DNA of 51,024 nt from Streptomyces misionensis (lineage in GTDB: Bacteria; Actinomycetota; Actinomycetes; Streptomycetales; Streptomycetaceae), in contig NZ_VOGW01000001.1 of NCBI RefSeq assembly GCF_007896895.1, forward strand, positions 48,549-99,572, written 5' to 3'. Shown here one piece after another: positions 14,975 through 40,055 of the stretch (the first letter of the stretch is position 1; the number at the start of each line of letters is the position of its first letter). The position numbers and the translations under genes are program-made. The notes below the pieces were generated by a model. That model saw nothing but the letters and a program-made list of their open reading frames with translations, had not been told where the DNA came from and did no database searches.

Positions 14975-14999
14975 GTCGGCTCCTCGAAGTAGGGGCGGG

Positions 15000-16554: not shown

Positions 16555-16742
16555 CGTCACCACTTCCTCCTCCGCCGTCCCGTCCCGGCGAACCGGGTCC
16601 CACGTCCAGCATGGAGGGAGACCGGGCGGCTCGCACGGGGACGCGGGCGGCGGCCCGGGGGCGAGGGCCCAACACCCGGGTGACGCAGGCGGGTTGACGA
16701 GTCCGGACGAACGCCGACATCTTCCCGGCCCGGCGCGGAAAT

Positions 16743-23742: not shown

Positions 23743-25523
23743 GCCTCCCGCCCACGGCCGGCGGCACTCGCCGGCGTCCGCCCGGCCGCCAGGGCGGCGA
23801 GGTCACCGCTGAGGTAACGCGCCCGGCACGCCCGCCGCTGCACCTTGCCGCTCGACGTCCGGGACAAAGCGCCGCGCCGGACGAGGAGCACCTCGTCGGC
23901 CGTCAGCCGGTGGTCCTCGCGGACCGCGGCGCCGATCCGCTCCCGCAGGGCGTCCGCCCCCGGCGAGCGCAGCACCCGCCCGTCCGCCTCCAGGACGACG
24001 ACGAGCCGTTCCCGCGCGCCGTCGTCCACGGAGAACGCGGCGGCGCAGTTGGGGTGCAGCCCGGGCACGGCCCGTTCGGCCGACAGCTCGATGTCCTGCG
24101 GGTAGTGGTTGCGGCCCTTGCGGATGATGACGTCCTTGAGCCGCCCGGTGACGTACAGGTCGCCGGCGTACAGGAAACCGAGGTCGCCGGTGCGCAGATG
24201 GGGCCGGGCGTCCCCGCCCTCGACGCGGGCCCGGAAGGTGGCCTCGCTCTCCTCTGGCCGGCCGCGGTAACCAGCCGCCACACAGGGGCCGTCGACCCAG
24301 ATCTCGCCGACCTCGCCCGGCGGGCGCGGCAGCCGGGAGTCCGGGTCCACGATCCGCACCCGGGTGGTGCCGACCGCGCTCCCGCTGCTGACCAGCGCGA
24401 GCGCGTCCCCGGCGGTGCGGGCGACGGGCCGTACGGCGCCCTCGCGCAGCGCCTCGGCGTCCACCCACAGCACGGTGGGCTCCCGGTCCTGGCGGTCGCC
24501 CGTCGCCTTCAGGGTGTTCTCCGCCAGTCCGTAGCCCGGGCACATGGCGGCGGGCCGGAAGCCGTGCGGCGCGAACGCGGCGGTGAAGGCCTCGATCGTC
24601 CGCCGGCGCACCGGTTCGGCGCCGTTGGCGGCCACCCGCCAGCGGGAGAGGTCGCCGACGCCGCTCGTCGCGCCCTCGGCGGCGGCGCGGGCGCACAGTT
24701 CGTAGGCGAAGCTCGGCGCCGCGGCGTGGGTGCCGCCGAACCGGGCGATGGCCTCCAGCCAGCGGGCCGGGCGGCGGATGAAGGACTCGGGCGCCATCAG
24801 GTAGGAGGGGATGCCCGACCACAGCGGCAGCACGACGCCGAAGAGCATGCCCATGTCGTGGAAGAGCGGCAGCCAGTTCACCACCGTGCCGTCGGGCTCG
24901 CAGGGCCACAGCTCGTCCGTCTCGACCACGTTCGCCAGGAAGTTGGCGTGGCTGACCATGACGCCCTTGGGGTCGCCGGTGGAGCCCGAGGTGTACTGGA
25001 GCAGCGCGATGTCCTCGGGGCCGGGCGGCTCGGGCAGGACGCCCGTCTTCGGGTCCCGGTCCGGAACGTCGGTGGCCAGCAGGGTCAGCCCGGCCAGTTC
25101 GGGCAGGTCGCCGAAGCGCTCGTACAGCTCCGCGCGGACCTCGGCGGTGGTCAGCACGGTGGTGGTACCGGCGTCGTCGGCGATGCGCCGCAGCCGCCGG
25201 ACGTCCTCGCGGCGCCGGGGGACCTGCACGGGGGCGCCGGCCACCCGGCCGTCCATGCAGCCCAGCAGGGTGCGGACGAACTCCAACCCGGACGGGTAGG
25301 TCAGGACGGCCCGGCCCCCGGACAGCCCGGCCGCGGCGAAGCGGGCGGCCCGGGCGCGGGCGGCCTCGTGCAGGGCGCGGTAGGTGAGCGCGGACCCGGG
25401 CTCCTCGCCGTCGCGCAGGAAGACGTAGGCGGTCTCGTCGGGCTGCTTGGCGCTGCGCAGCCGCAGGGCGTCGGGGAGGGTGCGCACCTCGTCCGCGTGC
25501 GGATCGAGTCCGGTGGTGTTCAC
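23739..25523 (-). CDS. Fatty acyl-AMP ligase (FAAL)
   Basis: 594 residues of the adenylate-forming superfamily. The P-loop YTSGSTGDPKG (about residues 177-187), WLPLFHDMGM, PGYGLAENTLKATG, GEIWVDGPCVAAGYRG and LRTGDLGFL are arranged as in FadD32-like FAALs, which make acyl-adenylates and load them on carrier proteins rather than CoA. The C-terminal Lys is in SRTSSGKVQRR. GTG start at 25523 with AAGGAG 9 nt upstream. Overlaps the KAS III gene. No dedicated ACP lies beside it; the nearest carrier proteins are those of LctA and LctB, divergent from it. Confidence 0.92.
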   Translation of the reverse strand: MNTTGLDPHADEVRTLPDALRLRSAKQPDETAYVFLRDGEEPGSALTYRALHEAARARAARFAAAGLSGGRAVLTYPSGLEFVRTLLGCMDGRVAGAPVQVPRRREDVRRLRRIADDAGTTTVLTTAEVRAELYERFGDLPELAGLTLLATDVPDRDPKTGVLPEPPGPEDIALLQYTSGSTGDPKGVMVSHANFLANVVETDELWPCEPDGTVVNWLPLFHDMGMLFGVVLPLWSGIPSYLMAPESFIRRPARWLEAIARFGGTHAAAPSFAYELCARAAAEGATSGVGDLSRWRVAANGAEPVRRRTIEAFTAAFAPHGFRPAAMCPGYGLAENTLKATGDRQDREPTVLWVDAEALREGAVRPVARTAGDALALVSSGSAVGTTRVRIVDPDSRLPRPPGEVGEIWVDGPCVAAGYRGRPEESEATFRARVEGGDARPHLRTGDLGFLYAGDLYVTGRLKDVIIRKGRNHYPQDIELSAERAVPGLHPNCAAAFSVDDGARERLVVVLEADGRVLRSPGADALRERIGAAVREDHRLTADEVLLVRRGALSRTSSGKVQRRACRARYLSGDLAALAAGRTPASAAGRGREA

Positions 25524-26602: not shown

Positions 26603-29600
26603 ATGCCCCATGAGCGCGGAGCGCCCACTGCGCGCGCCGTCACAGACTTTCTGCTTTCTCGCGTCGTCGAACTGCTGGACGTGGCCAAGGACGCGGTGGA
26701 CCGCTGGGCCCCCATGCACCGTTACGGCCTGGAGTCGGTGAAGGCGGCCGCGCTCGCCGCCTCGCTGTCCGAATTCCTGGGCTGGAAGGTCCCGGTCACC
26801 TGGATGTGGCAGTACCCGACCATCGACGAACTGAGCCGTGCGCTCGTCGACGGTCCCCGGGCCGCGCAGACCGCCCAACCGGTCGACGACCGGCGTACGG
26901 CGGCGCGGGAGCCGGTCGCGATCGTCGGCATCGGCTGCCGGTTCCCGGGCGGCCCGGACCCGGACGCGTTCTGGCGGCTGCTGACCGAGGGCCGCGACGC
27001 CGTCGGACCGGTGCCGGCCGAGCGCCGCGAACTCCTGCGCGACAGCGTGCGCTGGGGCGGCTTCATCGACGGCATCGACCGCTTCGATCCGCTGTTCTTC
27101 GGCATCTCGCCCCGGGAAGCCGTCCAGATGGACCCGCAGCAGCGCCTCGTGCTGGAGCTGGCCTGGGAGGCACTGGAGGACGCGGGGATCGCACCCCGGG
27201 GCCTCGTCGGCAGCGACACCGGCGTGTTCATGGCCTCCTGCTGGGGCGACTACGCGGCGCTCGCCCACTACCGCGGCCCCGACAGCCAGATCACCCCGCA
27301 CACCGCGACCGGCATGCACAACGGCATCATCGCCAACCGCGTCTCCTACATCCTCGGCCTCCAGGGCCCGAGCATGGCCATCGACGCCGCCTGCGCCGGT
27401 TCGCTGGTCTCGGTGCACCTGGGCTGCCAGTCGATCTGGATGGGCGAGAGCGAACTGGTGCTGGCCGGCGGGGTGAACCTGAGCTTCGTCTCCGACTACT
27501 ACACCGCCATGGACCGGATGGGCGCGCTCGCCCCGGACGGCCGTTGCAAGACCTTCGACGCGCGCGCCGACGGCTACGTCCGCGGCGAGGGCGCCGGCGT
27601 CGTCGTACTCGCCCCGCTGAGCGTGGCGCTCGAACGCGAACTGCCCGTGTACTGCCTGATCAAGGGCAGCTCGGCCAACAACGACGGTGCCAGCAACGGC
27701 ATGACCGCGCCCAACCCGCAGGCGCAGGAGCTGATGCTGCGCACCGCCTACCGGCGGGCCGGCATCGCGCCGTCCCTCGTGGACTACATCGAGTGCCACG
27801 GCTCCGCGACCCCCCTCGGTGACCCCATCGAGGCCAACGCCATCGGCGCGGTCCTGGGCGGTGACCGCCCGGCGCCGCTCCGGCTCGGTTCCGTGAAGTC
27901 CAACGTCGGACACCTGGAGGCGGCGGCCGGCATCGTCGGCCTGGTCAAGCTCGCGCTCTCGATCCGCAACGGCGTGCTGCCCCCGAGCCTGCACTACGCC
28001 ACCCCCAACCCGCAGATCATGTTCGACGAGTACAACCTCACGGTCCAGGACCGGCTGACCCCGTGGCCGCGACGGTCCGACGCGCGCCGCGGGGGAGTCA
28101 GCTCGTTCGGCTTCGGCGGCGCGATCTGCCACGTCGTCGCCGAGGAACTGCCGCGCCCCGAGGGCTCCCTCGTCCTGCTGGCCGAGGACTCGCCGCAGGC
28201 GCTGGCCGAGCGCGCCCGGGCGCTGCGCGACGAGCACGACCTGCGGGCGATCAGCGGACGGCCGCCCGGCGACGGCAGGTTCCGGCTCGCGGCCGCCGCC
28301 CGCGACATGACCGAGCTGAGGGCACAGCTGGACGCCTTCGCCGGCGGCACGACGGCTCCCGGGCTGAGCGTCGGCGAACAGGGCGGACGCAGGCCGCGAG
28401 TGGCGTTCCTGTTCTCCGGCAACGGCTCGCAGTGGGTCGGCATGGGCAGGCAACTGCTCGCCGGGATGCCCGTGTTCCGCCGCTCCATGATGCGCTCCGA
28501 CAAGCGGATGCGCGAGCTGCTGGGCTTCTCGCCGGTCGAACAGATGCTGGCGCCCGACGGCCGCCTCGACGACATGGACGTCTTCCAGCCGCTGCTGTTC
28601 TGCATGCAGGTCGCCCTGGCCGACGCCTGGCGCTCGCTGGGCGTGGAGCCCGACGTGGTCGTGGGACAGAGCGTCGGTGAGTTCGCCGCCTCCCACATCG
28701 CCGGGGCGCTCGACTTCGAGGACGCCTCCCGGCTGGCCGCCTGCCACGGCAGGCTCCTCCAGCAGCTGGCCGTCGGACGCGGCGAGGGCATCGTGGTCAC
28801 CACCGGCGCCGACGCCGTCGAGCGGTACCTGACCGGACAGCTCACGGTCTCCGGCCACAACGGCCCGAACTCCACGCTGGTGACCGGCACCCCGCAGGAG
28901 ATCGACGACCTCGTCCAGCGGCTGACCGAGGAGGGCGTCACCACCCACCGGGTGCGGATGGGCCACGCCCCGCACTCCCCGCTGGTCGACCATGTCCTCG
29001 CCCCGCTCAAGACCGAACTCGCCGGCCTCACCCCCCGGTCCACCCGCATCCCGATGATCTCCACGGTCACCGGCGAACGCATCGACGGCGCCGAACTCGG
29101 CCCGGACTACTGGGCGGACAACCTGCGCCGGGAGATCCGGGTCGTCGACGCCCTGACGGCCCTGCGCGACCACGACATCGACGCGGTGATCGAACTCAGC
29201 CCGCACCCCGTGCTGCTCAAGTCGGTGGCGGAGCTCCTCCCCGCCACCACCCTGCCCTCGCTGCGCCGCGGCACCGACGAGGCCTGGACCCTGCTGGGCT
29301 CGCTCGGCGCGCTGTACGCCGCCGGGCACCCGGTCACCGCGAGCCCCTTCCTCGCCGGCGACCGGGGACGCCACGCCACACCCGGCCGGGGCGCCCCCGC
29401 GACCGACGAACGGCCGTACCTCGTGCCCGTCACGGCGCACTCGGCCGCCGCGCTGGCCGACACCTGCCGCGAACTGTCCAACCACGTCGAACGCGACCCG
29501 GGCCTGCGGGTGTCCGACCTCGCCTACACCCTCGCGACCAGGCGTTCCCCCCAGAACCACCGGGTGGCGCTGTTCGCCCGCAACCGGCAGGAGGTCCTGG

Positions 29601-32600
29601 ACGGCCTCGCCCGGGTCGCCTCCGGCCGGTCGCACCCCGACGCCGTCACCGGCACGGTCACCGGCACCGGCGACCGGCGCGTGGTGCTGGTGTTCTCCGG
29701 CGGTGGCACCCACTGGGTGGGCATGGGCCGCGAACTCATGCGCACGCACGCCGGGTTCCGCACCTGGATGCAGGCCTGCGACACCGCCGTACGCGCGGCC
29801 GGCGGCTGCTCGGTCCTCGAACAGCTCGACGCCCCCGAGGACGCGGCCCGGTTCGAGGAGATGGACTTCCAGCAGCCCGTCCTGTTCGCCCTCCAGGTCT
29901 CGCTGGCCAAGGTCTGGCTCGGGCTCGGGGTGCGGCCGGCCGCCGTCGTCGGACACAGCCTCGGCGAGGTCGCGGCCGCGTGCGTGGCCGGGGCGCTGTC
30001 CCTGGAGGACGCGGCCCGCGTGGTCGTCGCCCGCTCGCACCTGCTCGAACACGAGGCGGCCCCCGGCGCCATGATCTCGGTCGACCTGCCCGAGCGGGAA
30101 CTGCTGCCGTGGCTCGCCCCGTACGCGAAGCACGCGGCGGTCGCCGTGGTCAACAGCCCCACCAGCGCGGCCGTTTCCGGCTCGCCCGAGGCCGTCCGCG
30201 CGCTGGAGGCCGAGCTGCGGCGGGCGGGGGTCTCCACCAGGAACATCCGGGTCGAACGACCGGTGCACAGCCCCGGCATGGACCCGCTGACCGAGCCGCT
30301 GCGCGAACTCATCGCCGGCATCACCCCGTCGGCCGGCACCATCGACTTCCACTCCACCGCCCTGGCCGGCACGGTGAACCCGGTCGTCGACGTCGACTAC
30401 TGGGTGCACAACCTGCGCAACCAGGTCCGGTTCGCCGAGACGATCGGCGCGCTGGTCGAGGGCGGCGTGGGCACCTTCGTGGAGATCGGCCCGCACGAGA
30501 CGCTGCGCGGCGCGGTCGAGGAGATCGCGCTCGGCCGCAACGCCCCGGTGCACGCGGTCAACTCCCTGCGGCGCGGTGAGAGCGACCTGCGCTGTCTGCT
30601 GGGGGCCGCCGCGTCCTTGTACGTCAGGGGCGTCCCGCTGACCTTCGACCCGCTGTTCGACGACGACGTCGAGGTCGTGGAGACCCCGCTCGTGCAGTGG
30701 CAGAAGGAACGTTTCTGGTTGGACGTCGAGCCCCGTGCCGAAGCCGCGCCCGCGGCGGTCGCGGCACCGGCCCCGGCGCCCGCCGCGCAGACCGCGGCCG
30801 CGCCCGCGACCGCCCCGGCCGACACCAGGTCGCCCGCGGAGATCCTCGTCGGCGAGATCGCCGACGTGCTCGGCGTGGCCGAGCACAGGCTCGACGCGGA
30901 CTCACGCCTGCGCGACTTCGGCCTCGACTCGATGCTGGCGATCCGCCTGGTCAACAAGGTGCAGTCGCTGTTCGGACAGCGGGTGTCGCCGGTGGTGTTC
31001 CTCGACGGGCGCACCATCGCCGAGATCGTCGCCCATCTCACCGAGGCCACGGGCGGACCGGCCGCGGCCGCGGCGGCCGAGCCGCCCCCGCCCGCCCCGC
31101 CCGCTCCGGCCGTCCCGGCCCCCCGGCCGGAGCCGGCGCCCGAGCCCCGGCGCACACCGGCCCTCCTCGACGAGCTGTCCGAGCTCGACGCCGGGGAACT
31201 GGTCGAGGAACTGGCCGCGCGCGGCCTGCTGGACCCCACCGACGCACCGGCGCTCGACCAGCTGCGCGCAGAGGGCCTCGGCTTCGGCATCGCTCCGGCC
31301 TCACACGGCCAGGCCTCCCTGTGGTTCATGCAGCAGATCGCGCCGGACGCCGTGCCGTACAACTTCATGGTGGCCGCCCGGATCCGCGCCGCGGTGGACG
31401 AACAGGCCCTGGAACGCGCCGTGTCGGCCGTGATCGAACGGCATCCCGCGCTGCGCACGATCTTCGTGGAGGCGGGCGGCAGCCCCTACCAGGTCATCCT
31501 CGACGAACCGGAGTACGAGTTCGTCGTCCTGGACGGCACGGGCCTGGACGAGGAGGAGGCCCGCGAGGAACTGGCCGTCCAGGGCCATCTGCCCATGGAC
31601 CTGGACAACGGGCCGCTGGTGCGCGTGGTGCTGCTCACCCGCGGCCCCGCGGACCACTGTCTGCTGGTCCTCGTGCACCACATCGCCTCGGACGCGGCAT
31701 CGGCCGACGTGATGATCCGCGAACTCCAGGAGTTCTACGCGGGCGCCGCCCCCGAAGACCGCGAACCCGCCGCCCCCTACACGGAGTTCGTGGAGTGGGA
31801 GCGGCAGTGGCTGGAAGGCCCGGCGGCCGACGCGGCCCTCGACTGGTGGGCGGAGCGACTGGCCGACCCGCCCGCCCGCCTCGACCTGTCCCCCGGACAG
31901 CGCCCGCCCGGCGTTACCTACGAGGGCCGCGACCTCACCTTCCGCTGGAGCGCCGAGGAGACCCGTACCCTGCGGGAGTTCGCGGTGCGCGAAGGCGTCT
32001 CGATCAGCACCGTCGCGCTGGCCGGCTTCTTCGCCACCCTCAACCGGGCGGCCGCCGTCGAGGACTCCGTGCTCGCCACCGCCATCGCCCAACGCGGCGA
32101 GCCCGGCTGGGAGTCGGCCATCGGCTACTACCTGAACACCGTGCTGGTGCGCGCGAAACCGGCGGGCGACCGCTCCTTCCGGGACCTGCTGCACGAGGTC
32201 CACGCGTTCTCGCTCGGCCTGCTGGAGCACATGAACTACCCCCTCGACCTGCTGGCGTCCACCCTGAAGCCACCGCGGACCGAGGGCCGCTCCCCGTGGT
32301 TCGACGTCGTGCTGAACTGGCTGTCCTCGGACGCCTTCCCACGCTCCGTCAAGCTCTTCCACGGCATCGGCGACACCATCGACCCGGCCGGCGCCCTGCC
32401 GCTCGAACCGCTGCCCGTCCGCAGGCACCTCGCCAAGTTCGACCTGGAGATCTCGATGGCCGAGATCTCCGGCGAAGTGGTCGGCCATGTCCAGTACAAA
32501 CCGAGCTACCTGGAGAAGCAGACCGTGACGGCACTGCTCACGCTCTACCGCACCGTGCTCTTCGACTCGATCGCCCGACCCGACCTGGCACTGGACGCCA

Positions 32601-32638
32601 TCGCGCCGGCCGGCCTCCCCGAGGGGACGGACCAGTGA
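26603..32638 (+). CDS. lctA: Hybrid PKS-NRPS LctA: ACP-KS-AT-AT-ACP-C
   Basis: 2011 residues. Domains: ACP 12-85 (Ser45 in YGLESVKA); KS 102-520 (Cys264 in DAACAGS, His399, His437); AT1 598-870 (Ser690 in GQSVGE, His791); AT2 1027-1320 (Ser1119 in GHSLGE, His1222); second carrier 1410-1485 (Ser1443 in GLDSML); condensation domain 1563-2000 (HHIASDA, His1693). No reductive domain. AT2 keeps the extender carboxylate-binding Arg (Arg1144); AT1 has His715 there, so AT1 should load a starter lacking a carboxylate. This matches recalled architectures of SalA (salinosporamide) and LctA (lactacystin). Proposed job: put formyl on ACP1, extend with methylmalonyl on ACP2, amidate with the LctB amino acid. 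AGGAGG lies 4 nt before the ATG. Overlaps lctB (GTGA). Confidence 0.9.
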   Translation: MPHERGAPTARAVTDFLLSRVVELLDVAKDAVDRWAPMHRYGLESVKAAALAASLSEFLGWKVPVTWMWQYPTIDELSRALVDGPRAAQTAQPVDDRRTAAREPVAIVGIGCRFPGGPDPDAFWRLLTEGRDAVGPVPAERRELLRDSVRWGGFIDGIDRFDPLFFGISPREAVQMDPQQRLVLELAWEALEDAGIAPRGLVGSDTGVFMASCWGDYAALAHYRGPDSQITPHTATGMHNGIIANRVSYILGLQGPSMAIDAACAGSLVSVHLGCQSIWMGESELVLAGGVNLSFVSDYYTAMDRMGALAPDGRCKTFDARADGYVRGEGAGVVVLAPLSVALERELPVYCLIKGSSANNDGASNGMTAPNPQAQELMLRTAYRRAGIAPSLVDYIECHGSATPLGDPIEANAIGAVLGGDRPAPLRLGSVKSNVGHLEAAAGIVGLVKLALSIRNGVLPPSLHYATPNPQIMFDEYNLTVQDRLTPWPRRSDARRGGVSSFGFGGAICHVVAEELPRPEGSLVLLAEDSPQALAERARALRDEHDLRAISGRPPGDGRFRLAAAARDMTELRAQLDAFAGGTTAPGLSVGEQGGRRPRVAFLFSGNGSQWVGMGRQLLAGMPVFRRSMMRSDKRMRELLGFSPVEQMLAPDGRLDDMDVFQPLLFCMQVALADAWRSLGVEPDVVVGQSVGEFAASHIAGALDFEDASRLAACHGRLLQQLAVGRGEGIVVTTGADAVERYLTGQLTVSGHNGPNSTLVTGTPQEIDDLVQRLTEEGVTTHRVRMGHAPHSPLVDHVLAPLKTELAGLTPRSTRIPMISTVTGERIDGAELGPDYWADNLRREIRVVDALTALRDHDIDAVIELSPHPVLLKSVAELLPATTLPSLRRGTDEAWTLLGSLGALYAAGHPVTASPFLAGDRGRHATPGRGAPATDERPYLVPVTAHSAAALADTCRELSNHVERDPGLRVSDLAYTLATRRSPQNHRVALFARNRQEVLDGLARVASGRSHPDAVTGTVTGTGDRRVVLVFSGGGTHWVGMGRELMRTHAGFRTWMQACDTAVRAAGGCSVLEQLDAPEDAARFEEMDFQQPVLFALQVSLAKVWLGLGVRPAAVVGHSLGEVAAACVAGALSLEDAARVVVARSHLLEHEAAPGAMISVDLPERELLPWLAPYAKHAAVAVVNSPTSAAVSGSPEAVRALEAELRRAGVSTRNIRVERPVHSPGMDPLTEPLRELIAGITPSAGTIDFHSTALAGTVNPVVDVDYWVHNLRNQVRFAETIGALVEGGVGTFVEIGPHETLRGAVEEIALGRNAPVHAVNSLRRGESDLRCLLGAAASLYVRGVPLTFDPLFDDDVEVVETPLVQWQKERFWLDVEPRAEAAPAAVAAPAPAPAAQTAAAPATAPADTRSPAEILVGEIADVLGVAEHRLDADSRLRDFGLDSMLAIRLVNKVQSLFGQRVSPVVFLDGRTIAEIVAHLTEATGGPAAAAAAEPPPPAPPAPAVPAPRPEPAPEPRRTPALLDELSELDAGELVEELAARGLLDPTDAPALDQLRAEGLGFGIAPASHGQASLWFMQQIAPDAVPYNFMVAARIRAAVDEQALERAVSAVIERHPALRTIFVEAGGSPYQVILDEPEYEFVVLDGTGLDEEEAREELAVQGHLPMDLDNGPLVRVVLLTRGPADHCLLVLVHHIASDAASADVMIRELQEFYAGAAPEDREPAAPYTEFVEWERQWLEGPAADAALDWWAERLADPPARLDLSPGQRPPGVTYEGRDLTFRWSAEETRTLREFAVREGVSISTVALAGFFATLNRAAAVEDSVLATAIAQRGEPGWESAIGYYLNTVLVRAKPAGDRSFRDLLHEVHAFSLGLLEHMNYPLDLLASTLKPPRTEGRSPWFDVVLNWLSSDAFPRSVKLFHGIGDTIDPAGALPLEPLPVRRHLAKFDLEISMAEISGEVVGHVQYKPSYLEKQTVTALLTLYRTVLFDSIARPDLALDAIAPAGLPEGTDQ

Positions 32639-34455
32639 CCCAGACCCTGCACGCGCAGTTCGCCGAACAGGCGAAGAAGACCCCTGACGCCACCGCGGTC
32701 TACTCCGACGCCGGTGTCCTGACCTACCGCGAGCTGGACGAGCGGTCCCGGGAGCTGGCCGAACGGCTCGCCGCCGAGGGCGCCGGTCCCGGCATCCCGG
32801 TCGGCGTCTGCGTCGAGCGCACCCCCGACCTGCTCGCCGGCATCCTGGCCGTCCTGCGCACCGGCTCCTGCTACGTGCCCCTGGACCCGCGCTACCCGGC
32901 CGAGCGGCTGGCCTTCATGGTCCGCGACAGCGGCACCCGCCTGCTGCTCACCACGCCCGCCTCCCGGGCCAACTGCCCGGCCGGCCCGACCACGGTGGTG
33001 CTGGACAGGACCGCCACCACCGAGCCCGGCGAGAAGCCCGTACCGGTCGTGCCCGGCGACACCGCGTACGTGATCTACACCTCGGGCTCCACCGGCCGCC
33101 CCAAGGGCGTGGCGGTGCGGCACGGCGGCTGTGTCGCCATGCTGGCCGCGATGGACCGCACCCTGGCCGGCTGCGACCTCAGCGGCGTCTCCGCGGCCAG
33201 CTCGATCTGCTTCGACATGTCCGTGATGGAGATCTTCCCCACGCTGTGCCGGGGCGGTGCCGTCGTGCTCGTGGAGAGCGCCGTCCACCTCCCGGAGAGC
33301 CCGCACGTCGACCGGATCACCCATCTGCACGCCATCCCCTCCGTGATGAACACGCTGCTCGACGCCGGCGGCCTGCCCCCGAACCTGCGCACGGTCGTGT
33401 TCGGCGGCGAGCCCCTGCGGCGCAAGCTGGTCGACCGGGTGTACCAGGAGACCGGCGCCGACCGGGTCTTCAACGCCTACGGCCCCACCGAGGGGACCGT
33501 CTTCTGCACCTTCGGGCCGGTGCCGAAGGACGGCACGGACGAACCCACGATCGGCCCGCCCACGGACGGCGCCCGGGTCTACGTGCTCGACGAGAACCTG
33601 AAGCCGCTGCCGCCCGGCGTGCCCGGCGAGCTGTACCTCGGCGGCGCGGGCCTCGGCCACGGCTACGTCAACCGGCCGCGCACCACCACCGAACGGTTCG
33701 TCCCCGACCCGTTCCGGGACGGCGAGCGGATGTACCGCACCGGCGACGTCGTCCGGCTGACCGACAGCGGTGAACTGGAGTTCGTGGGCCGCACCGACAA
33801 CCAGGTCAAGGTGCGCGGCCACCGCATCGAGCTGGAGGAGGTCGAGGCCCGGCTGACCGGCTGCCCCGAGGTCCGGGAGGCCGCCGCCGTCGTACGGGGC
33901 CGCAGGCTCGTCGGCTACGTCGTGCCCGAGGGCGAGGTCCACGACGGCGTGCGGGTGGACGCCGCGCTCCAGGCCGCCATCACCGGCAAACTCGCCACCG
34001 AGCTGCCCGACTACATGATCCCCGGGGCGATCGTCCTGCTGCCCGCGCTCCCGCTGACGCCGGGCGGAAAGCTCGACCGCGCAGCCCTCCCCGAGCCGCC
34101 CGCCGCCGGCACCGGACGCCCCGTGACGCCCGCCGGCACCCCGACCGAGGTGGCGCTCGCGGAGATCTGGGGCCAGCTGCTCGACCTCGAACCGGCGAGC
34201 ATCGACGTCCGGGCCGCCTTCTACGACCTCGGCGGCGACTCGCTGCTGCTGGTCCGGCTGGCCCGGCTGATGACCCGGCGCTTCGACCGCCGGGTGCGCG
34301 TGCCCGACCTGTTCAGCTTCCGTGACATCCACTCGCTCGGCCGCTGGCTGGACGACGAGAGCGGCGCCACCCCCGAGGCGGTGCAGTCGGCCCGCCGCCG
34401 GGCCACCGTCCGCCGCGCCGCGCTGCGGGGCCGCGCCGCCTCCGGCGGCAACTGA
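32635..34455 (+). CDS. lctB: NRPS LctB: adenylation domain and peptidyl carrier protein
   Basis: 606 residues. Adenylation domain about 5-490 with YTSGSTGRPKG (148-158), NAYGPTE, GELYLGG, YRTGD, KVRGHRIELEEVE and Lys479 in TPGGKLDR; carrier domain 503-572 with Ser536 in LGGDSLLL. No condensation, epimerase or thioesterase domain, so it supplies an aminoacyl thioester to the LctA C domain. Manual alignment to GrsA gives specificity residues D-M-M-S-V-G-A-V-F-K; Asp194 indicates an alpha-amino acid. Leucine is expected if the product is lactacystin-like, but the code was not matched to a database. GTG start overlaps the lctA stop; lctC begins 38 bp downstream. Confidence 0.9.
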   Translation: MTQTLHAQFAEQAKKTPDATAVYSDAGVLTYRELDERSRELAERLAAEGAGPGIPVGVCVERTPDLLAGILAVLRTGSCYVPLDPRYPAERLAFMVRDSGTRLLLTTPASRANCPAGPTTVVLDRTATTEPGEKPVPVVPGDTAYVIYTSGSTGRPKGVAVRHGGCVAMLAAMDRTLAGCDLSGVSAASSICFDMSVMEIFPTLCRGGAVVLVESAVHLPESPHVDRITHLHAIPSVMNTLLDAGGLPPNLRTVVFGGEPLRRKLVDRVYQETGADRVFNAYGPTEGTVFCTFGPVPKDGTDEPTIGPPTDGARVYVLDENLKPLPPGVPGELYLGGAGLGHGYVNRPRTTTERFVPDPFRDGERMYRTGDVVRLTDSGELEFVGRTDNQVKVRGHRIELEEVEARLTGCPEVREAAAVVRGRRLVGYVVPEGEVHDGVRVDAALQAAITGKLATELPDYMIPGAIVLLPALPLTPGGKLDRAALPEPPAAGTGRPVTPAGTPTEVALAEIWGQLLDLEPASIDVRAAFYDLGGDSLLLVRLARLMTRRFDRRVRVPDLFSFRDIHSLGRWLDDESGATPEAVQSARRRATVRRAALRGRAASGGN

Positions 34456-34493
34456 GTCATCTCCCCCCACCCCGACCCGAGCAGGAGCCTTCC

Positions 34494-36275
34494 ATGTCCG
34501 ACAGTCCAGAGCAGGACTACGATCCGGGCGACGTGGCCGTCATCGGCATCTCGTGCCGGGCGCCCGGCGCCCGCACCAAGGAACAGTTCTGGGACAACCT
34601 CGTGCACGGCAGGGAGTCCGTGACGTTCCTCGCCAAGGACGAGATCACGGTCGACGAGACCCTGATCAACAACCCGTACTACGTGCGGGCCTGCGGCACG
34701 CTCGAAGGGTACGACGCGTTCGATCCGTCGGTGTTCGGCATCAGCGACCGGATGGCGGCCGTGATGACCCCGGAGAACCGGCTGTTCGTGGAGAGCGCCT
34801 GGGAGGCGCTGGAGGACGGCGGCTACGACCCCGACCGGATCACCGGCGAGGTGGGCATCTACGGCGCCAACAACCCGCAGACCGCCGCCCTGTACAGCTC
34901 CCCGCCGGACCGGGTGTCGGTCGGGCCCGAGGCGATCGAGCACGGCCTGGCGTGGTCGCCGGACACCATGACGTCCAACGCCCTGTACTACATAGGGCTG
35001 ACCGGCGAGGCCGTCACCGTCACCACCGCCTGCGCCGGCTTCCACTACGCGGTGCACCTGGCCTGCCAGTCGCTGCTGCTCGGCCAGACCGACCTGGCGA
35101 TCGCCGGCGGCGCCATGGTCCGGCTGCCGCAGCCCCGGGGCCATCTGTGGGAGGAGGGCCGCATCCTGTCCCGGGACGGCCACTGCCGCCCGTTCGACGC
35201 GGGCGGCACCGGCGCCGCCCTGTCCAGCGGCGTCGCCACGCTGCTGCTCAAGCCGCTGGCCGAGGCCGTCGCCGACCGCGACCACATCTACGCCGTGATC
35301 AAGGGCTCGGCCATCAACAACAACGGTGTGAGCGCGATGGCCTACGGGCTGGCCCAGCCCGAGCGGCTCAGCGCGTGCATCGCGGGCGCCATGCAGGTCG
35401 GCGGCGTCACCCCGGAGACCGTGTCCATGTACGAGGCCAACGGTCTCGGACTGCCGATGACCGACCAGCTCGAGGTCCACGCGGTGAGCATGGCGTTCGG
35501 CAAGCAGACCGGCACCTGCTCGATCGGCTCGGTCAAGAGCAACGTCGGCCACGGCGGCGTGGTCGCGGGCGGCTTCGGCGCCGTGAAGGCCGCCATGGCC
35601 CTGTACCACCGGACGCTGGCGCCGACGATCAACCTGACCGACGTCGACCCGGACATCGACTTCCCCAGCACCCCGTTCGTGCCGCAGCGGGAAGCGGCGG
35701 ACTGGGAACCGGAGGCCGGCGTCCGCCGCGCGGGCATCACCGCGATCGGCGGCGGCGGATACAACGCGCACCTCGTGCTGGAGGAACCGCCGGCCCCCGC
35801 CGAGCGGGCCCCCGAGACCGCCGGACCGCGCCTGGCCACCCTGTCCGCCCTGGACGACGAGGCACTGGCCGACCGGCGCGCCCGGCTGAGGGACTGGCTG
35901 GTCGCCAACCCCGGACTGCGCCTGGACGACGTGTGCTTCAGCCTCAACCTGGGCCGCCGCGCGATGGAGCGCCGGTGGGCGGCCGTGGTCCGCAGCCGCG
36001 AGGAACTGATCGAGGCGCTGTCCGCCGACGCGCCCCGCGACCTGGTCACCACGACCGCCGCGGCGCCCCGGGTGGACGAGGACTCCCTGCGCCACGACGA
36101 CCGCGGGATCGTGCCGTCCGGCCAGGACGCACCGGCCCTGTTCGACGTCGCCGCGGCCTGGGTGACCGGCCGCCGGGTGGACTTCGACGCCCTGCACCGG
36201 GGCGAGAGCAGCCACCGGGTGCCGCTGCCCACCTACCCGTTCCGGCCGCGCCGATTCTGGCGGACGAACTGGTGA
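34494..36275 (+). CDS. lctC: Stand-alone ketosynthase-like cyclase LctC (SalC-type)
   Basis: 593 residues: a KS fold (1-430) with a C-terminal linker-like tail ending PTYPFRPRRFW, the usual post-AT linker, but no AT. The nucleophile is Cys180 in TTACAGFHY and the second His is kept (His353 in KSNVGHGG). The first catalytic His, in EAHGTGT of normal KSs, is Asn316 (YEANGLGLPMTD), so decarboxylative condensation should be impaired. From memory, the salinosporamide homologue SalC cyclises the aminoacyl thioester by an intramolecular aldol reaction and closes the beta-lactone. The same role is proposed here. AGGAG precedes the ATG; it overlaps lctD by 4 bp. Confidence 0.88.
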   Translation: MSDSPEQDYDPGDVAVIGISCRAPGARTKEQFWDNLVHGRESVTFLAKDEITVDETLINNPYYVRACGTLEGYDAFDPSVFGISDRMAAVMTPENRLFVESAWEALEDGGYDPDRITGEVGIYGANNPQTAALYSSPPDRVSVGPEAIEHGLAWSPDTMTSNALYYIGLTGEAVTVTTACAGFHYAVHLACQSLLLGQTDLAIAGGAMVRLPQPRGHLWEEGRILSRDGHCRPFDAGGTGAALSSGVATLLLKPLAEAVADRDHIYAVIKGSAINNNGVSAMAYGLAQPERLSACIAGAMQVGGVTPETVSMYEANGLGLPMTDQLEVHAVSMAFGKQTGTCSIGSVKSNVGHGGVVAGGFGAVKAAMALYHRTLAPTINLTDVDPDIDFPSTPFVPQREAADWEPEAGVRRAGITAIGGGGYNAHLVLEEPPAPAERAPETAGPRLATLSALDDEALADRRARLRDWLVANPGLRLDDVCFSLNLGRRAMERRWAAVVRSREELIEALSADAPRDLVTTTAAAPRVDEDSLRHDDRGIVPSGQDAPALFDVAAAWVTGRRVDFDALHRGESSHRVPLPTYPFRPRRFWRTNW

Positions 36276-37513
36276 GCGTGCGCGCGCCGGCCCCGGAGAC
36301 CGTCGACCTGGGCGACCCCGGCACCTTCGCGGACCACGACCTCGACGAGTTCTGGCGCACCCTGCGGGACACCGCGCCGGTGCACTGGAACCCACCGGCC
36401 GACGGCCGCCCGGGATTCTGGGTGGTCTCCCGCCACGACGACATCATGGCCGCCTACCGGGACGACGAGCACTTCACGTCCGAGCGCGGCAACGTGCTCG
36501 TCACCCTGCTGGGCGGCGGGGACGCCGGGGCCGGCCGGATGCTGGCCGTCACCGACGGGCACCGGCACCACGAGCTGCGCAAGATCCTCCAGCGGGTGCT
36601 GTCGCCGCGGGTGCTCAACGACGTCGCGGCGGCGGTACGGGCCAACACCCGGCAACTGGTCCGCGAGGCGGTCGACAGCGGCGGCTGCGACTTCGCCGAG
36701 CAGATCGCGAGCCGCATCCCGATGACCACGATCTCCAACCTGCTCGGCGTGCCCGAGCGGGACCGCGACTACCTGCTCGAACAGACCAAGGCCGCGCTGT
36801 CGGCCGACACCGAGGACGTCGACGAGGTCGACTCCGAGATGGCCCGCAACGAGATCCTGCTGTACTTCATGGACATGGTCGAGGAGCGGCGCGAGAAGCC
36901 CGGCGACGACGTGATCAGCATGTTGATCGCCAGCTCCATCGACGGGGTGCCGCTGTCCGACGAGGACATCGTGCTCAACTGCTACAGCCTGATCATCGGC
37001 GGCGACGAGACCAGCCGGCTGACGATGATCGACGGCGTCCACACCCTCGCGGCCCGCCCGGACCAGTGGCGGCGGCTCAAGCACGGCGAGGTCGCGATCG
37101 ACACCGCCGTGGACGAGGTGCTGCGCTGGGCGTCGCCCACCATGCACTTCGGGCGCACCGTGGTCCGCGAGACCGAACTGCACGGCGTACCGCTGCGGCC
37201 GGGCGAGATCGTCACGCTCTGGCATGCCTCCGGCAACCGGGACGAGCGGGTCTTCGACCGGCCCGGCGAGTACGACCTCGGCCGCACCCCCAACAAGCAC
37301 CTGGCCTTCGGCTACGGCCCGCACTTCTGCCTCGGCTCCTACCTGGCCAAGGTGGAGATCTCCGAACTCCTCATGGCGTTGCGGGACTTCACGACCGGGT
37401 TCGAGCAGACCGGCGAGGCGCAGCGCATCCGGTCCAACTTCCTGACCGGGTTCTCCACGCTGCCGGTGCGGTTCCGGCCAGACGACTCCGGAAGGAAAGA
37501 GGTCGACCGATGA
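36272..37513 (+). CDS. lctD: Cytochrome P450 LctD, probable aminoacyl-PCP beta-hydroxylase
   Basis: 413 residues. K-helix ExxR at 282-285 (EVLR), heme loop FGYGPHFCLG with ligand Cys353, and I-helix GGDETSR (243-249) in place of the common AGxET; GDETSR occurs in P450s acting on carrier-bound substrates such as amino acids on PCPs. SalD is the analogue in salinosporamide assembly. The expected reaction is beta-hydroxylation of the LctB-bound amino acid, giving the secondary alcohol of the side chain. GTG at 36272 overlaps lctC; GTG 36278 is an alternative. Overlaps lctE by 4 bp. It has no ferredoxin of its own; the pair at 15000-16554 is the nearest. Confidence 0.9.
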   Translation: MSVRAPAPETVDLGDPGTFADHDLDEFWRTLRDTAPVHWNPPADGRPGFWVVSRHDDIMAAYRDDEHFTSERGNVLVTLLGGGDAGAGRMLAVTDGHRHHELRKILQRVLSPRVLNDVAAAVRANTRQLVREAVDSGGCDFAEQIASRIPMTTISNLLGVPERDRDYLLEQTKAALSADTEDVDEVDSEMARNEILLYFMDMVEERREKPGDDVISMLIASSIDGVPLSDEDIVLNCYSLIIGGDETSRLTMIDGVHTLAARPDQWRRLKHGEVAIDTAVDEVLRWASPTMHFGRTVVRETELHGVPLRPGEIVTLWHASGNRDERVFDRPGEYDLGRTPNKHLAFGYGPHFCLGSYLAKVEISELLMALRDFTTGFEQTGEAQRIRSNFLTGFSTLPVRFRPDDSGRKEVDR

Positions 37514-37707
37514 GCGGCAACCCCTTCGACGGCGGCGAGGGCGACTGGCTGGTCGTGGTGAACGACGCCGGAGCGCACGCGTTGTGGCGGCCGTACCTGG
37601 AGCTGCCGAAGGGCTGGCGGGTCGTGTACCGCGGCCCCCGCCGCGACGACGCCCTCGACTACGCCGAACAGAACTTCACGGCGTTGGTGGACACGCCGAC
37701 GGCCTGA
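37510..37707 (+). CDS. lctE: MbtH-like NRPS accessory protein LctE
   Basis: 65 residues. MbtH proteins bind and stabilise adenylation domains. The core is recognisable: NPFDGGEGDWLVVVND, the Trp in ALWRPYLELPKGWRVVY, and the C-terminal DALDYAEQNFTAL. The usual SLWP is ALWR and the E.Q pair before it is changed, so this is a divergent member. The ATG at 37510 overlaps the P450 stop; partner is presumably the LctB adenylation domain. Confidence 0.88.
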   Translation: MSGNPFDGGEGDWLVVVNDAGAHALWRPYLELPKGWRVVYRGPRRDDALDYAEQNFTALVDTPTA

Positions 37708-37741
37708 ACAGGTACCCGACCAGCGAGCGCCGGGAGCGCGA

Positions 37742-38437
37742 GTGAACATCTACATATCAGGGCAGGGGGCGTTCGCGGTGCAGGTCGCGGATGCCCTGTG
37801 GGACGAGGGACACCGGATCGCGGGCGTGGCCGCCCCCCGGCTGCGCAAGGGGCACGGCGACGAGAGCAACGCGATGTCCTGGGACCGGCTGCGCTCCTGG
37901 GCGTACCCCAGGAGCGTCCCGTGGACGGACTCGGCCGAACTGCGGGCGATGCACGTGCCGGACGGGGTGGACGTCATCGTCGCCGCGCACTCGCACGCCT
38001 TCATCGGCCGCCGCACGCGCGCCCGGGCCGCCGTCGCGGCCATCGGCTACCACCCCAGCCTGCTGCCCCTGCACCGGGGCCGGGACGCGATCCGCTGGAC
38101 GATCCGCGACGGGGACAAGGTGACCGGCGGCAGCGTCTACCACCTCACGGAGCGCACCGACGGCGGCCCGATCGCCGCGCAGGAGCACCTGTTCGTGCCG
38201 CCGGGCTCGACCCCGCAGAGCCTGTGGCGCGAGCATCTGGCCCCGCTCGGGGTGCGGTTGCTGGTGCGGGTGGTCGCCGACCTCGCCGAGGGCCGGCGGA
38301 TCGAGGTCCCCCAGGACGAGAAGCTGGCGACCTGGGAGCCCGCGATGGACGCCCAGCCGCTGTTCAAACCCGAGCTGATCGCGCTGCCCGGGACGGCGCT
38401 CGTCGACGGCAGCAAGTGGGCCCTGCACGCCCGGTGA
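37742..38437 (+). CDS. lctF: Formyltransferase LctF (10-formyl-THF dependent)
   Basis: 231 residues of the PurN/Fmt formyltransferase fold. Of the Asn-His-Asp triad, His104 (GYHPSLLP) and Asp140 (TDGGPIAAQ) are present, but the Asn two residues before the His is Gly102. The strong core is HPSLLPLHRGRDAIRW. It lacks the C-terminal tRNA-binding domain of Fmt and is not a housekeeping PurN. By recalled published work on lactacystin, LctF formylates CoA from 10-formyl-tetrahydrofolate, and an LctA AT domain takes the formyl group as starter. GTG start at 37742 after GGGAGCG; 34 bp after lctE. Last gene of the collinear lct set. Confidence 0.85.
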   Translation: MNIYISGQGAFAVQVADALWDEGHRIAGVAAPRLRKGHGDESNAMSWDRLRSWAYPRSVPWTDSAELRAMHVPDGVDVIVAAHSHAFIGRRTRARAAVAAIGYHPSLLPLHRGRDAIRWTIRDGDKVTGGSVYHLTERTDGGPIAAQEHLFVPPGSTPQSLWREHLAPLGVRLLVRVVADLAEGRRIEVPQDEKLATWEPAMDAQPLFKPELIALPGTALVDGSKWALHAR

Positions 38438-38595: not shown

Positions 38596-38712
38596 ATGCA
38601 CAACGGATCATCACGGGGGCGGGCCCGGCCGGCCGCGGACGGCCGACTGCCGGGCTCCGGCGGCCGGCGCCCGTCGGACGGTCGCCGCGTGTTCCCCGGC
38701 AGGCCCGCATGA
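38596..38712 (+). CDS. Possible 38-residue leader ORF overlapping the MFS start
   Basis: ATG at 38596 has a purine-rich GAGAGGAAG upstream and encodes 38 residues, very rich in Arg and Gly, ending at a TGA that overlaps the exporter ATG (ATGA). The exporter itself has only a weak Shine-Dalgarno, so translation may be coupled through this ORF. It also spans strongly self-complementary GC sequence. No known domain. Confidence 0.4.
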   Translation: MHNGSSRGRARPAADGRLPGSGGRRPSDGRRVFPGRPA

Positions 38713-40055
38713 CCAGTGTCGCGGCGACGTCGCAGCAGAGGTCGGGCCTGGCGCTCGGAGTGCTGGCCGGGGCACTCGCACTGGACCTGAGCGGAATGGC
38801 CGTACTGAACGCGGCCCTGCCGTCCGTCGGCACACGCTTCGGCCTGGCCGACACCACCCTGCAATGGGTCATGACGGCCTACTCCGTCACGTTCGCCGGC
38901 TTCCTGCTGGTGGGCGGCAGGCTGGCCGATGTGTTCGGCAGACGGCGGGTGTTCGAGGCCGGGGTCGCCCTGTTCACGGCGGCCGCGCTGGTCGGGGCCC
39001 TGGCACCGGACGGCGCCGTGCTGCTCGGCGCGCGGGGCGTCCAGGGCATCGGCGCGGCCCTGTCCGGCCCGGCCGCCCTCGCGCTGCTGACCGAGGTGTT
39101 CCCGGAGGGACCGGAGCGGGGCCGCGCGCTCGGCGTGTACGCCGCGGTCGGCGCGGCCAGCTTCAGCGGCGGGATGCTGCTGGGCGGCGTGCTGACCGAG
39201 TTCCTCGGCTGGCGCTCGGTCCTGTGGTTCTCGGTGCTGCTCGGCGCGCTCGTGCTCGCGGTCACCCGGGCCGGACTGCCCGACGGGACGGGCCGCAGGG
39301 GGCCGGTGGACCTGGCCGGCGCCGTCTTCGGCACCCTCGGCCTCGCGCTGCTCGTCGTCGGCGTGAGCCTGGGCGGGGTGTGGGCCTGGGCCCTGGTCGC
39401 CGGCGCGGTGCTCTTCCTGGTGCTCTTCGTCGTCCGCGAGCGCGGCGCCGCCGACCCGCTGCTGCCGCTCGGCCTGTTCCGGATCCCGTCGGTACGGCTG
39501 GCGACCGCGGCGGCCTTCCTCCAGTACACGGCGTCGGTCGGGATCGTGTTCTTCGCGCCCCTGTACCTCCAGGGGATGCTGGGATACTCCCCGGTCGAAT
39601 CCGGCCTCTCCCTGGTGCCGATGTCGCTGACGGTGTTCCTCACCGCCAGCTTCCTCACCGGGCGGCTGCTGACCAGGTTCAGCCCGCGCACCCTGATGGT
39701 CACCGGCCTGGTGCTGATCGGCGCGGGCACGGCGCTGTGGACGACCACCCCGCACCACGGCAACTACCTGCTGCACGTGATGCCCGGGCTGGTGATCAGC
39801 GGCCTCGGCCAGGGCCTGAACTTCCCCGCGATGACCACGGCCGGCCTGGGCGGTGTGCCGCCGCACCAGCACGCGGTCGCCGGCGCGGTGAACGTCGTCG
39901 CCCAGCAGATCGGCTCCAGTGCCGGGGTCGCGGCCCTGGTCCTGGTCGCGGCGACCGCCGACGACCGGCTGTCGGGCTACCACCTGGCCTACCTCGTGGC
40001 CGGCGTCGCCTGTGCGGTCGGTGCCGCGGGAGTCGCGTCGACGCGGCGGAGCTGA
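38709..40055 (+). CDS. Major facilitator superfamily exporter
   Basis: 448 residues with about 12-14 hydrophobic helices. Motif A between helices 2 and 3 is GGRLADVFGRRRVF, and the helix 5 motif C region reads AVGAASFSGGMLLGGVLTEFLGWRSVLW, typical of drug/H+ antiporters (DHA2-like, short). Expected to use the proton gradient to expel a small molecule across the cytoplasmic membrane. Position directly after lctF makes it the likely product exporter and the only visible self-protection gene of the cluster; resistance by a modified proteasome subunit is not encoded here. Confidence 0.87.
   Translation: MTSVAATSQQRSGLALGVLAGALALDLSGMAVLNAALPSVGTRFGLADTTLQWVMTAYSVTFAGFLLVGGRLADVFGRRRVFEAGVALFTAAALVGALAPDGAVLLGARGVQGIGAALSGPAALALLTEVFPEGPERGRALGVYAAVGAASFSGGMLLGGVLTEFLGWRSVLWFSVLLGALVLAVTRAGLPDGTGRRGPVDLAGAVFGTLGLALLVVGVSLGGVWAWALVAGAVLFLVLFVVRERGAADPLLPLGLFRIPSVRLATAAAFLQYTASVGIVFFAPLYLQGMLGYSPVESGLSLVPMSLTVFLTASFLTGRLLTRFSPRTLMVTGLVLIGAGTALWTTTPHHGNYLLHVMPGLVISGLGQGLNFPAMTTAGLGGVPPHQHAVAGAVNVVAQQIGSSAGVAALVLVAATADDRLSGYHLAYLVAGVACAVGAAGVASTRRS

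What the first reader, a model, noticed from the sequence alone, without database searches (positions are those of the whole stretch)
26603..38437. Lactacystin-type (gamma-lactam-beta-lactone) proteasome inhibitor gene cluster
Seen: six collinear genes with domain order ACP-KS-AT-AT-ACP-C, A-PCP, stand-alone KS-like protein, P450, MbtH-like, formyltransferase. Known (recalled): the first five parallel the salinosporamide SalA-SalD logic, and the six-gene set with a formyltransferase parallels lactacystin lctA-lctF of Streptomyces lactacystinaeus. Inferred: the product is lactacystin or a close relative, because no chlorinase, crotonyl-CoA carboxylase/reductase or prephenate decarboxylase for a salinosporamide or cinnabaramide side chain is present, and a formyl starter replaces acetyl.
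Basis: partly seen in the sequence, partly recalled or inferred. Interest (0 to 1): 0.95.

Follow-up and report, generated by a model that had tools for sequence, protein, structure and literature searches.

The report
Lactacystin-type proteasome-inhibitor gene cluster
This stretch of a Streptomyces genome carries a complete six-gene set that is predicted to make lactacystin or a close relative, a natural product that blocks the proteasome, and would likely start its carbon chain from a formyl group; the pathway type appears to be known already, so this is a further member rather than a new kind.

Summary
In detail: six collinear genes at 26603-38437 encode ACP-KS-AT-AT-ACP-C, A-PCP, a stand-alone KS, P450, MbtH and a formyltransferase. 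The KS matches SalC (PDB 7S2X) full length. In 392 Streptomyces genomes the SalC-like KS occurs in 18 and the formyltransferase accompanies 16. Among 36 close loci, the 30 with KS identity of 75% or more all carry it; the 6 at 65-72% do not. Its best solved relatives are 10-formyltetrahydrofolate dehydrogenases, whose folate domain hands formyl to a phosphopantetheine arm, so formyl priming of an ACP is well supported but not shown. A lactacystin-like product is likely; no sequence labelled lct was available. New here: the genome has an unlinked second proteasome beta subunit with F45/V49, the positions reported for the resistance subunit SalI; it lies in a chromosomal setting shared with cluster-free species, so a protective role is a hypothesis. 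A relative (Streptomyces sp. SID12501) carries what looks like a recombinant of both cluster types. Verdict: real, well read, new member of a known kind.

The parts
26603..32638 (+). LctA-like PKS/NRPS, 2011 aa: ACP-KS-AT-AT-ACP-C
   Evidence: Pfam; 83-86% identity to A of loci L004, L006, L007
26909..28162 (+). KS domain of A; active site DAACAGSL, which marks the formyl-type loci
   Evidence: 28 of 28 formyl-type rows with letters (window and 27 loci; 3 truncated rows without letters) against DTACSSSL/DTACSASL in 6 of 6 sal/cin-type rows
28400..29263 (+). First AT of A: GQSVGE serine kept, His where extender-loading ATs have Arg (rule recalled): loading-type AT
   Evidence: alignment; domain as conserved as the second AT (mean pairwise identity 0.860 and 0.858 over 25 rows)
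29687..30625 (+). Second AT of A: Arg kept, motif RPVH; predicted extender (methylmalonyl) AT
31289..32596 (+). Condensation domain of A (HHxxxD kept)
32635..34455 (+). LctB-like A-PCP, 606 aa; ten-residue code read by hand as DMMHVGAVFK
   Evidence: code (GrsA positions recalled)
34494..36275 (+). LctC-like stand-alone KS (SalC family), 593 aa; Cys180 and His353 kept, first His of the usual KS triad is Asn
   Evidence: PDB 7s2x SalC, residues 1-593 matched, 954 bits; alignments
36272..37513 (+). LctD-like cytochrome P450, 413 aa
   Evidence: Pfam PF00067
37510..37707 (+). LctE-like MbtH protein, 65 aa
   Evidence: Pfam PF03621
37742..38437 (+). LctF-like formyltransferase, 231 aa, N-terminal folate domain only; G102-Y103-H104 and D140
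   Evidence: Pfam PF00551; best solved relatives are 10-formyltetrahydrofolate dehydrogenases; positions
38709..40055 (+). MFS transporter, candidate exporter of the product
   Evidence: Pfam PF07690; a homologue of at least 73% identity lies at 19 of 30 formyl-type loci (L020-L022 are one assembly; L005, L008, L023 are cut short upstream), there upstream of A on the opposite strand; none of 45% or more at the 6 sal/cin-type loci

Best explanation
Window 26603-38437 holds a complete six-gene set with a SalC-type KS and its own formyltransferase, and it is predicted to make lactacystin (through its beta-lactone omuralide) or a close congener. Predicted steps, each inferred unless marked: (1) the formyltransferase would likely move formyl from 10-formyltetrahydrofolate onto the phosphopantetheine arm of the first ACP of the A protein, as the folate domain of ALDH1L1 does with its own carrier domain; (2) the KS of A would extend formyl with a small branched unit, probably methylmalonyl, loaded by the second AT, giving a methylmalonic-semialdehyde thioester; (3) B would activate a leucine-like amino acid, helped by the MbtH protein, and the P450 would likely hydroxylate its beta carbon; (4) the condensation domain would form the amide; (5) the stand-alone KS, a full-length homologue of SalC (shown by sequence), would close gamma-lactam and beta-lactone together; (6) N-acetylcysteine opening of the lactone to lactacystin probably draws on mycothiol and a housekeeping amidase, whose gene is present in the genome (shown). 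Self-protection may rest on the MFS exporter and on an unlinked V49 proteasome beta subunit.
For: Domain order and intact motifs. C matches SalC full length; [quoted passage not shown] Formyltransferase and C co-occur: C in 18 of 392 Streptomyces genomes, F in 17, both in 16; the two C genomes without F (G272, G350) have the lowest C identity of the 18, 70 and 69%. F in all 30 close loci with C identity of 75% or more and in 0 of 6 at 65-72%. F is closest to 10-formyltetrahydrofolate dehydrogenases (76 bits against 51 for the next kind), whose N-terminal domain passes formyl to the 4'-phosphopantetheine of an ACP-like domain (PMC8748788, abstract and passages); F has Gly at the position where that enzyme has Ile in the printed alignment and where N-formylating relatives have Asn (recalled), in 31 of 31 rows. 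KS of A differs from the sal/cin type at 26 fixed positions (25 against 5 rows). Second-AT motif: RPVH in 26 of 28 rows with letters, RPMH in L018, RPAH only in L040, beside which a CCR gene lies; RPGH, RAGH or RAAH in the 5 sal/cin-type rows with letters.
Against: No metabolite data; no sequence labelled lct was available. The adenylation code cannot be assigned to leucine from these calls and varies among formyl-type loci (DMMHVGAVFK, DMMNVGAVFK, DLMSVGAVFK, DLMNVGAVFK, and DLMNVGGVFK in L040). The first AT keeps its motifs in all 28 rows with letters although direct formylation of the ACP should make it dispensable. MbtH is detected at only 11 of 30 formyl-type loci at the cut-off (12), so it is not constant. 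An F-like formyltransferase (75%) also occurs in G330 beside a different NRPS-PKS gene set, in a genome without a C match at E <= 1e-150, so F alone does not define the pathway. The identity line between the types may not be sharp: a C relative of 70% (P0089) and an F relative of 70% (P0222) are listed with contigs of the same length, 23147 (not followed up).
Confidence: 0.82

Rival explanations
1. The cluster makes a gamma-lactam-beta-lactone of the same core but not lactacystin: another amino acid or extender gives an unreported congener.
For: The adenylation code varies within the formyl-type loci and cannot be assigned; in Salinispora the products of such clusters vary with the extender AT (PMC8609351, passages).
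Against: The window and nine other loci share one code; the second-AT motif is nearly uniform outside L040; no genes for an unusual amino acid or extender were seen in the window scans.
Confidence: 0.2
2. A salinosporamide/cinnabaramide-type cluster with an acetyl starter; the formyltransferase is a bystander.
For: Core genes A-E are shared with sal/cin-type loci and the first AT still looks like a loading AT.
Against: F in 16 of 18 C-positive against 1 of 374 C-negative Streptomyces genomes and in all 30 close loci but none of the 6 sal/cin-type ones; fixed KS differences; no extender or cyclohexenylalanine genes seen in the window.
Confidence: 0.05
3. The formyltransferase N-formylates an amine, or makes a free formyl thioester that the first AT then loads, rather than formylating the first ACP directly.
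For: The first AT is conserved as strongly as the second (0.860 and 0.858), which direct ACP formylation does not explain; carrier-linked formylating domains such as that of linear gramicidin synthase are weaker relatives.
Against: The closest solved relatives hand formyl to a carrier arm; the residue typical of N-formylating relatives (recalled) is absent in 31 of 31 rows; the expected product keeps no N-formyl group.
Confidence: 0.12

Closest known systems
lct cluster of Streptomyces lactacystinaeus (lctA-lctF; recalled, paper not seen)
   Same: Same six gene kinds in the same order as recalled, with a formyltransferase.
   Different: No lct sequence was available, so identity is unknown; the window genome lacks the lactazole core pattern recalled for S. 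lactacystinaeus, weak evidence that it is another species. Nearest named C homologue: S. misionensis, 98%.
Salinosporamide cluster (SalA-SalE, SalC structure 7S2X)
   Same: Core assembly genes and SalC homologue, including Asn in place of the first KS histidine.
   Different: The sal-type locus of Salinispora fenicalii (L033) has no formyltransferase within the fetched stretch; its A-protein KS reads DTACSSSL against DAACAGSL.
Cinnabaramide-like clusters (loci L030, L031, L032, L034, L035; type assigned here)
   Same: Order A-B-C-D, with E found in four of the five.
   Different: No formyltransferase in the fetched stretches; CCR in L032 and L034; proteasome beta subunit of the V49 kind within 10 kb in L030, L031, L034 and L035.
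ALDH1L1 (10-formyltetrahydrofolate dehydrogenase)
   Same: Such enzymes are the best solved relatives of F, and their folate domain transfers formyl to a 4'-phosphopantetheine arm.
   Different: There the carrier is fused and feeds an aldehyde dehydrogenase; here F is a separate protein and the predicted acceptor is a PKS ACP.
SalI, salinosporamide-resistance proteasome beta subunit
   Same: The second beta subunit of this genome has F45 and V49; a review names 45 and 49 as the positions in which SalI differs (PMC6449301, passages; the letters of SalI are recalled). It is 58% identical to the housekeeping subunit of its genome.
   Different: SalI lies in its cluster; this one is on another contig, in a setting shared with species without the cluster.

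Membership tests
Formyl-type (lactacystin-type) gamma-lactam-beta-lactone cluster | Collinear A-F set with ACP-KS-AT-AT-ACP-C, A-PCP, SalC-type KS, P450, formyltransferase | tested here: met
   MbtH also present though detected at only 11 of 30 other loci
Formyl-type (lactacystin-type) gamma-lactam-beta-lactone cluster | SalC-family KS with its altered triad (Cys, Asn, His) | tested here: met
   Cys in 39 of 39 rows, Asn in 37 of 37 formyl- and sal/cin-type rows, second His in 38 of 39 rows
Formyl-type (lactacystin-type) gamma-lactam-beta-lactone cluster | Sequence match to the characterised lct genes | not testable with these tools
   no sequence labelled lct in any call; paper not found in the listings and not held under a DOI given from recall
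Formyl-type (lactacystin-type) gamma-lactam-beta-lactone cluster | Product lactacystin or omuralide | not testable with these tools
   needs culture and mass spectrometry
Salinosporamide/cinnabaramide cluster | Genes for a special extender (CCR, chlorinase) and cyclohexenylalanine in the neighbourhood | tested here: not met
   none in the Pfam scans of the window genes; CCR and a weak prephenate-dehydratase match in related loci
Salinosporamide/cinnabaramide cluster | No formyltransferase; A-protein KS motif DTACSSSL or DTACSASL | tested here: not met
   F present; KS motif DAACAGSL
SalI-type resistance beta subunit (unlinked gene) | Second beta subunit with changes at 45 and 49 | tested here: met
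   F45 and V49 against A45 and A49 in the housekeeping copy
SalI-type resistance beta subunit (unlinked gene) | Linked to the cluster | tested here: not met
   different contig
SalI-type resistance beta subunit (unlinked gene) | Measured resistance to the inhibitor | not testable with these tools
   needs purified proteasome

The most novel reading that the evidence does not exclude
The lactacystin pathway is a recombining kit: a formyl-priming and cyclising block (A, C, F) and an amino-acid block (B, D, E) that can be swapped with salinosporamide/cinnabaramide relatives, as in Streptomyces sp. SID12501. Its hosts were pre-adapted: an old, chromosomally fixed proteasome beta subunit with V49, found in about a fifth of the Streptomyces genomes sampled and also in species without the cluster, gives tolerance to the product, and the resistance subunits now carried inside cinnabaramide-like clusters were captured from that chromosomal family.
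Probability: 0.35. Interest if true: 0.65.

Novelty: new member of a known kind. Interest (0 to 1): 0.4.

Why it matters
It adds a complete, intact-looking source of a classical proteasome inhibitor and a comparative set that separates formyl-type from acetyl-type clusters by sequence alone: formyltransferase, KS motif and AT motif. If the V49 beta subunit does protect producers, it would offer a bacterial model of how proteasomes become tolerant to beta-lactone drugs and a genome marker for finding such producers. The recombinant SID12501 cluster predicts a product that neither parent type would give.

Tried and rejected
Species identity: the lactazole core pattern, typed from recall, is absent from the genome; this only weakly speaks against S. 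lactacystinaeus.

A dedicated resistance gene: at first the second beta subunit looked like one, because it is enriched in genomes with C (11 of 18 against 65 of 374; Fisher p 7.6e-5, not corrected for kinship). But it is absent from 7 of those 18 and from 21 of 28 named formyl-type genomes (the named set seems to overlap the sample of 392, since several matches have the same coordinates and scores). Of 76 beta-2 genomes I fetched 20 neighbourhoods, 10 with C and the 10 highest-scoring without it. In 17 of the 20, all 10 without C and 7 of 10 with C, the gene has at least one of two shared neighbour families; L204 and L205 have other neighbours and L206 stops short of the gene. So I keep protection as a hypothesis.

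Decay of the first AT as a sign of lost function: not seen. Upstream genes 22741-25523 as part of the cluster: found at 0 of 30 formyl-type loci, though most of those loci hold only about 2 kb upstream of A. A wider hunt for F-like genes: 1 of 346 genomes of the phylum, the window's own.

Literature: eight searches. The lactacystin gene-cluster paper that I recall did not appear in the listings (20 of 26 shown; 25 of 57; 10 of 84) or 76 (1 of 1, unrelated), so its content is recalled. PMC6760633 (a lactacystin review) has no passage on biosynthesis genes for the terms tried. Structure prediction and fold search were not run because the sequence matches already settled the families.
Full report
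OBSERVATION. The six genes are there at the stated coordinates and look intact. Three junctions (A/B, C/D, D/E) overlap by four bases, so the set is probably read from one transcript (inference). Chance can be excluded: the C protein matches the solved SalC structure over its whole length with E 2.4e-286.

WHAT SETS THE TYPE APART. One scan of species-representative genomes with an alignment of C relatives gave 73 loci. I scored all six window proteins against them. The 36 loci with C identity of 65% or more fall into two sets: 30 at 75% or more (L004-L029, L036, L037, L038, L040; L020-L022 come from one assembly, so 28 genomes), all with a formyltransferase, and 6 at 65-72% (L030-L035), none with one in the fetched stretch. 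I call them formyl type and sal/cin type. The other 37 loci are distant KS matches and were left out of the counts, except L039 and L041, which were kept in the alignments of B and C. In 392 Streptomyces genomes C occurs in 18 (E <= 1e-150) and F in 17 (E <= 1e-70); 16 have both, G272 and G350 have C only (identity 70 and 69%, so on the sal/cin side), and G330 has F only. The line by identity may not be sharp: a C relative of 70% (P0089) and an F relative of 70% (P0222) are listed with contigs of equal length, 23147 (not followed up).

SEQUENCE SIGNATURES. In the A protein the KS active site reads DAACAGSL in 28 of 28 formyl-type rows with letters (3 truncated rows have none) and DTACSSSL or DTACSASL in 6 of 6 sal/cin-type rows. 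26 KS positions are fixed differently between 25 formyl-type and 5 sal/cin-type rows, against 10 in the first AT, 3 in the second AT and 19 in the condensation domain. The first AT lacks, in both types, the arginine that binds an extender's carboxylate (rule recalled). The second AT keeps it; its specificity motif is RPVH in 26 of 28 rows, RPMH in L018 and RPAH in L040, and carries Gly or Ala at that place in the 5 sal/cin-type rows with letters. A bulky Val fits a small extender such as methylmalonyl (inference). The first AT is as conserved as the second (0.860 and 0.858), which is unexplained if F loads the ACP directly. In Salinispora one AT of SalA is called loading and the other extender AT (PMC8609351, passages); which is which in my numbering rests on the arginine.

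FORMYLTRANSFERASE. F is a folate domain of 231 aa without the C-terminal part of methionyl-tRNA formyltransferases (match to 1-205 of 315). Its best solved relatives are 10-formyltetrahydrofolate dehydrogenases (76 bits; next kind 51 bits). The N-terminal domain of ALDH1L1 gives formyl to the 4'-phosphopantetheine arm of an ACP-like domain (PMC8748788; abstract and passages seen). This makes ACP formylation the natural reading here. His104 and Asp140 are kept; the neighbouring position is Gly102 in 31 of 31 rows, Ile in the printed dehydrogenase alignment. That N-formylating relatives have Asn there is recalled. The 120 best of 3121 relatives run down to 68% identity and include other actinomycete genera, but in a sample of 346 genomes of the phylum only the window's own passed E <= 1e-60.

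CYCLISING KS. C keeps Cys180 and His353 and has Asn where ordinary KSs have the first histidine, as in SalC. [quoted passage not shown] the original paper is not held). [quoted passage not shown] N-acetylcysteine groups in Streptomyces products have been proposed to come from mycothiol (PMC9150181, abstract and passages; it treats other compounds). A gene over the cut-off for mycothiol S-conjugate amidase is elsewhere in this genome; that this is usual for Streptomyces is recalled.

SELF-PROTECTION. The genome has a beta subunit and another proteasome subunit together on contig C128 and a second beta subunit on C145, 58% identical to the first. Counting from Thr1, it has F45 and V49 against A45 and A49. 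Reviews say that SalI differs at positions 45 and 49 (PMC6449301, passages) and gives 30-fold resistance (PMC6804068, passages). The first of them also says that SalI binds the drug with greater affinity and differs in only two residues although it is 58% identical, which do not fit together; the original paper was not read. In 126 beta sequences, duplicates included, 93 of 93 of this kind have V49 (88 have F45) and 33 of 33 housekeeping ones A49; the housekeeping rows all come from genomes with a C homologue. In the tree of 117 rows left after duplicates and short rows were dropped, the V49 kind is one clade with full support (midpoint root), and the copies near cinnabaramide-like clusters fall inside it. 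The V49 kind is in 76 of 392 genomes at E <= 1e-108. It is commoner with C (11 of 18 against 65 of 374), but the test ignores kinship. In the named set it is in 7 of 28 formyl-type and 5 of 6 sal/cin-type genomes, not in Salinispora fenicalii L033. In the window's genome it sits in a chromosomal setting shared with cluster-free species. So it probably predates the cluster there and can at most be a pre-adaptation. Beta subunits also occur in epoxyketone clusters (PMC8988807, abstract and passages). The MFS gene at 38709-40055 is a more direct candidate: homologues of 73% identity or more lie beside A at 19 of 30 formyl-type loci.

RECOMBINANT CLUSTER. Locus L040 (Streptomyces sp. SID12501) has order B-D-E-A-C-F. 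A and C are closer to the formyl type (mean identity 0.791 and 0.784 against 0.603 and 0.650), B and D closer to the sal/cin type (0.680 and 0.718 against 0.598 and 0.673); E was not tested. A crotonyl-CoA carboxylase/reductase and a 3-hydroxybutyryl-CoA dehydrogenase, both above curated cut-offs, lie beside it (L206). Its second AT has the altered motif, and a V49 beta subunit of the cluster-linked clade is about 15.5 kb from C. It is predicted to combine a formyl starter with a larger extender.

PLACE AMONG KNOWN THINGS. The cluster works like, and very likely is, a lactacystin-type cluster. The published lct genes are recalled and were not available for comparison, so membership rests on architecture and on the formyl-type signatures. 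I file it as a new member of a known kind.

Noticed in passing
L040 1-13000 and L206 (Streptomyces sp. SID12501): Apparent recombinant cluster: B and D closer to the sal/cin type, A and C closer to the formyl type, with F, plus crotonyl-CoA carboxylase/reductase and 3-hydroxybutyryl-CoA dehydrogenase genes; would predict a formyl-started product with a larger side chain.
   Followed up: partly
L002 1351-2205 (G000:C145:57389-58240): Second proteasome beta subunit with F45/V49, in a recurring chromosomal setting next to a membrane-protein gene, a BlaI-like regulator and a GH65-like gene (names from reading the sequences, not from family scans); the kind occurs in 76 of 392 Streptomyces genomes.
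   Followed up: partly
G330:C42, loci L234 and L235: F-like formyltransferase (75%) beside a different NRPS-PKS gene set with an MbtH-like gene (read by eye), in a genome without a C match at E <= 1e-150; possibly another formyl-using pathway.
   Followed up: partly
L039 (Caedibacter sp. MAG) and L041 (Alphaproteobacteria MAG): SalC-like stand-alone KS (46%) next to A- and B-like NRPS/PKS genes in alphaproteobacteria, with Val in place of the first KS histidine and no matches to the P450 or formyltransferase in the fetched stretch.
   Followed up: no
window 22741-25523, minus strand: KAS III-like gene and an AMP-binding (DIP2-like) gene diverging from the cluster; not seen at the other formyl-type loci, most of which hold only about 2 kb upstream of A.
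   Followed up: partly
window 13793-16563, minus strand: P450, ferredoxin-reductase-like and ferredoxin genes in a row: a possible separate P450 system that might also supply electrons.
   Followed up: no
37510-37707 and relatives: MbtH gene is detected at only 11 of 30 other formyl-type loci at the cut-off; in L006, for example, F follows D directly.
   Followed up: partly
L020, L021, L022 (Streptomyces alfalfae XY25): Three contigs of one assembly carry copies of the cluster with equal scores; duplication or assembly artefact.
   Followed up: no
window end 51024: The window ends at the end of its contig (C111, 99572 bases), so genes beyond cannot be seen.
   Followed up: no
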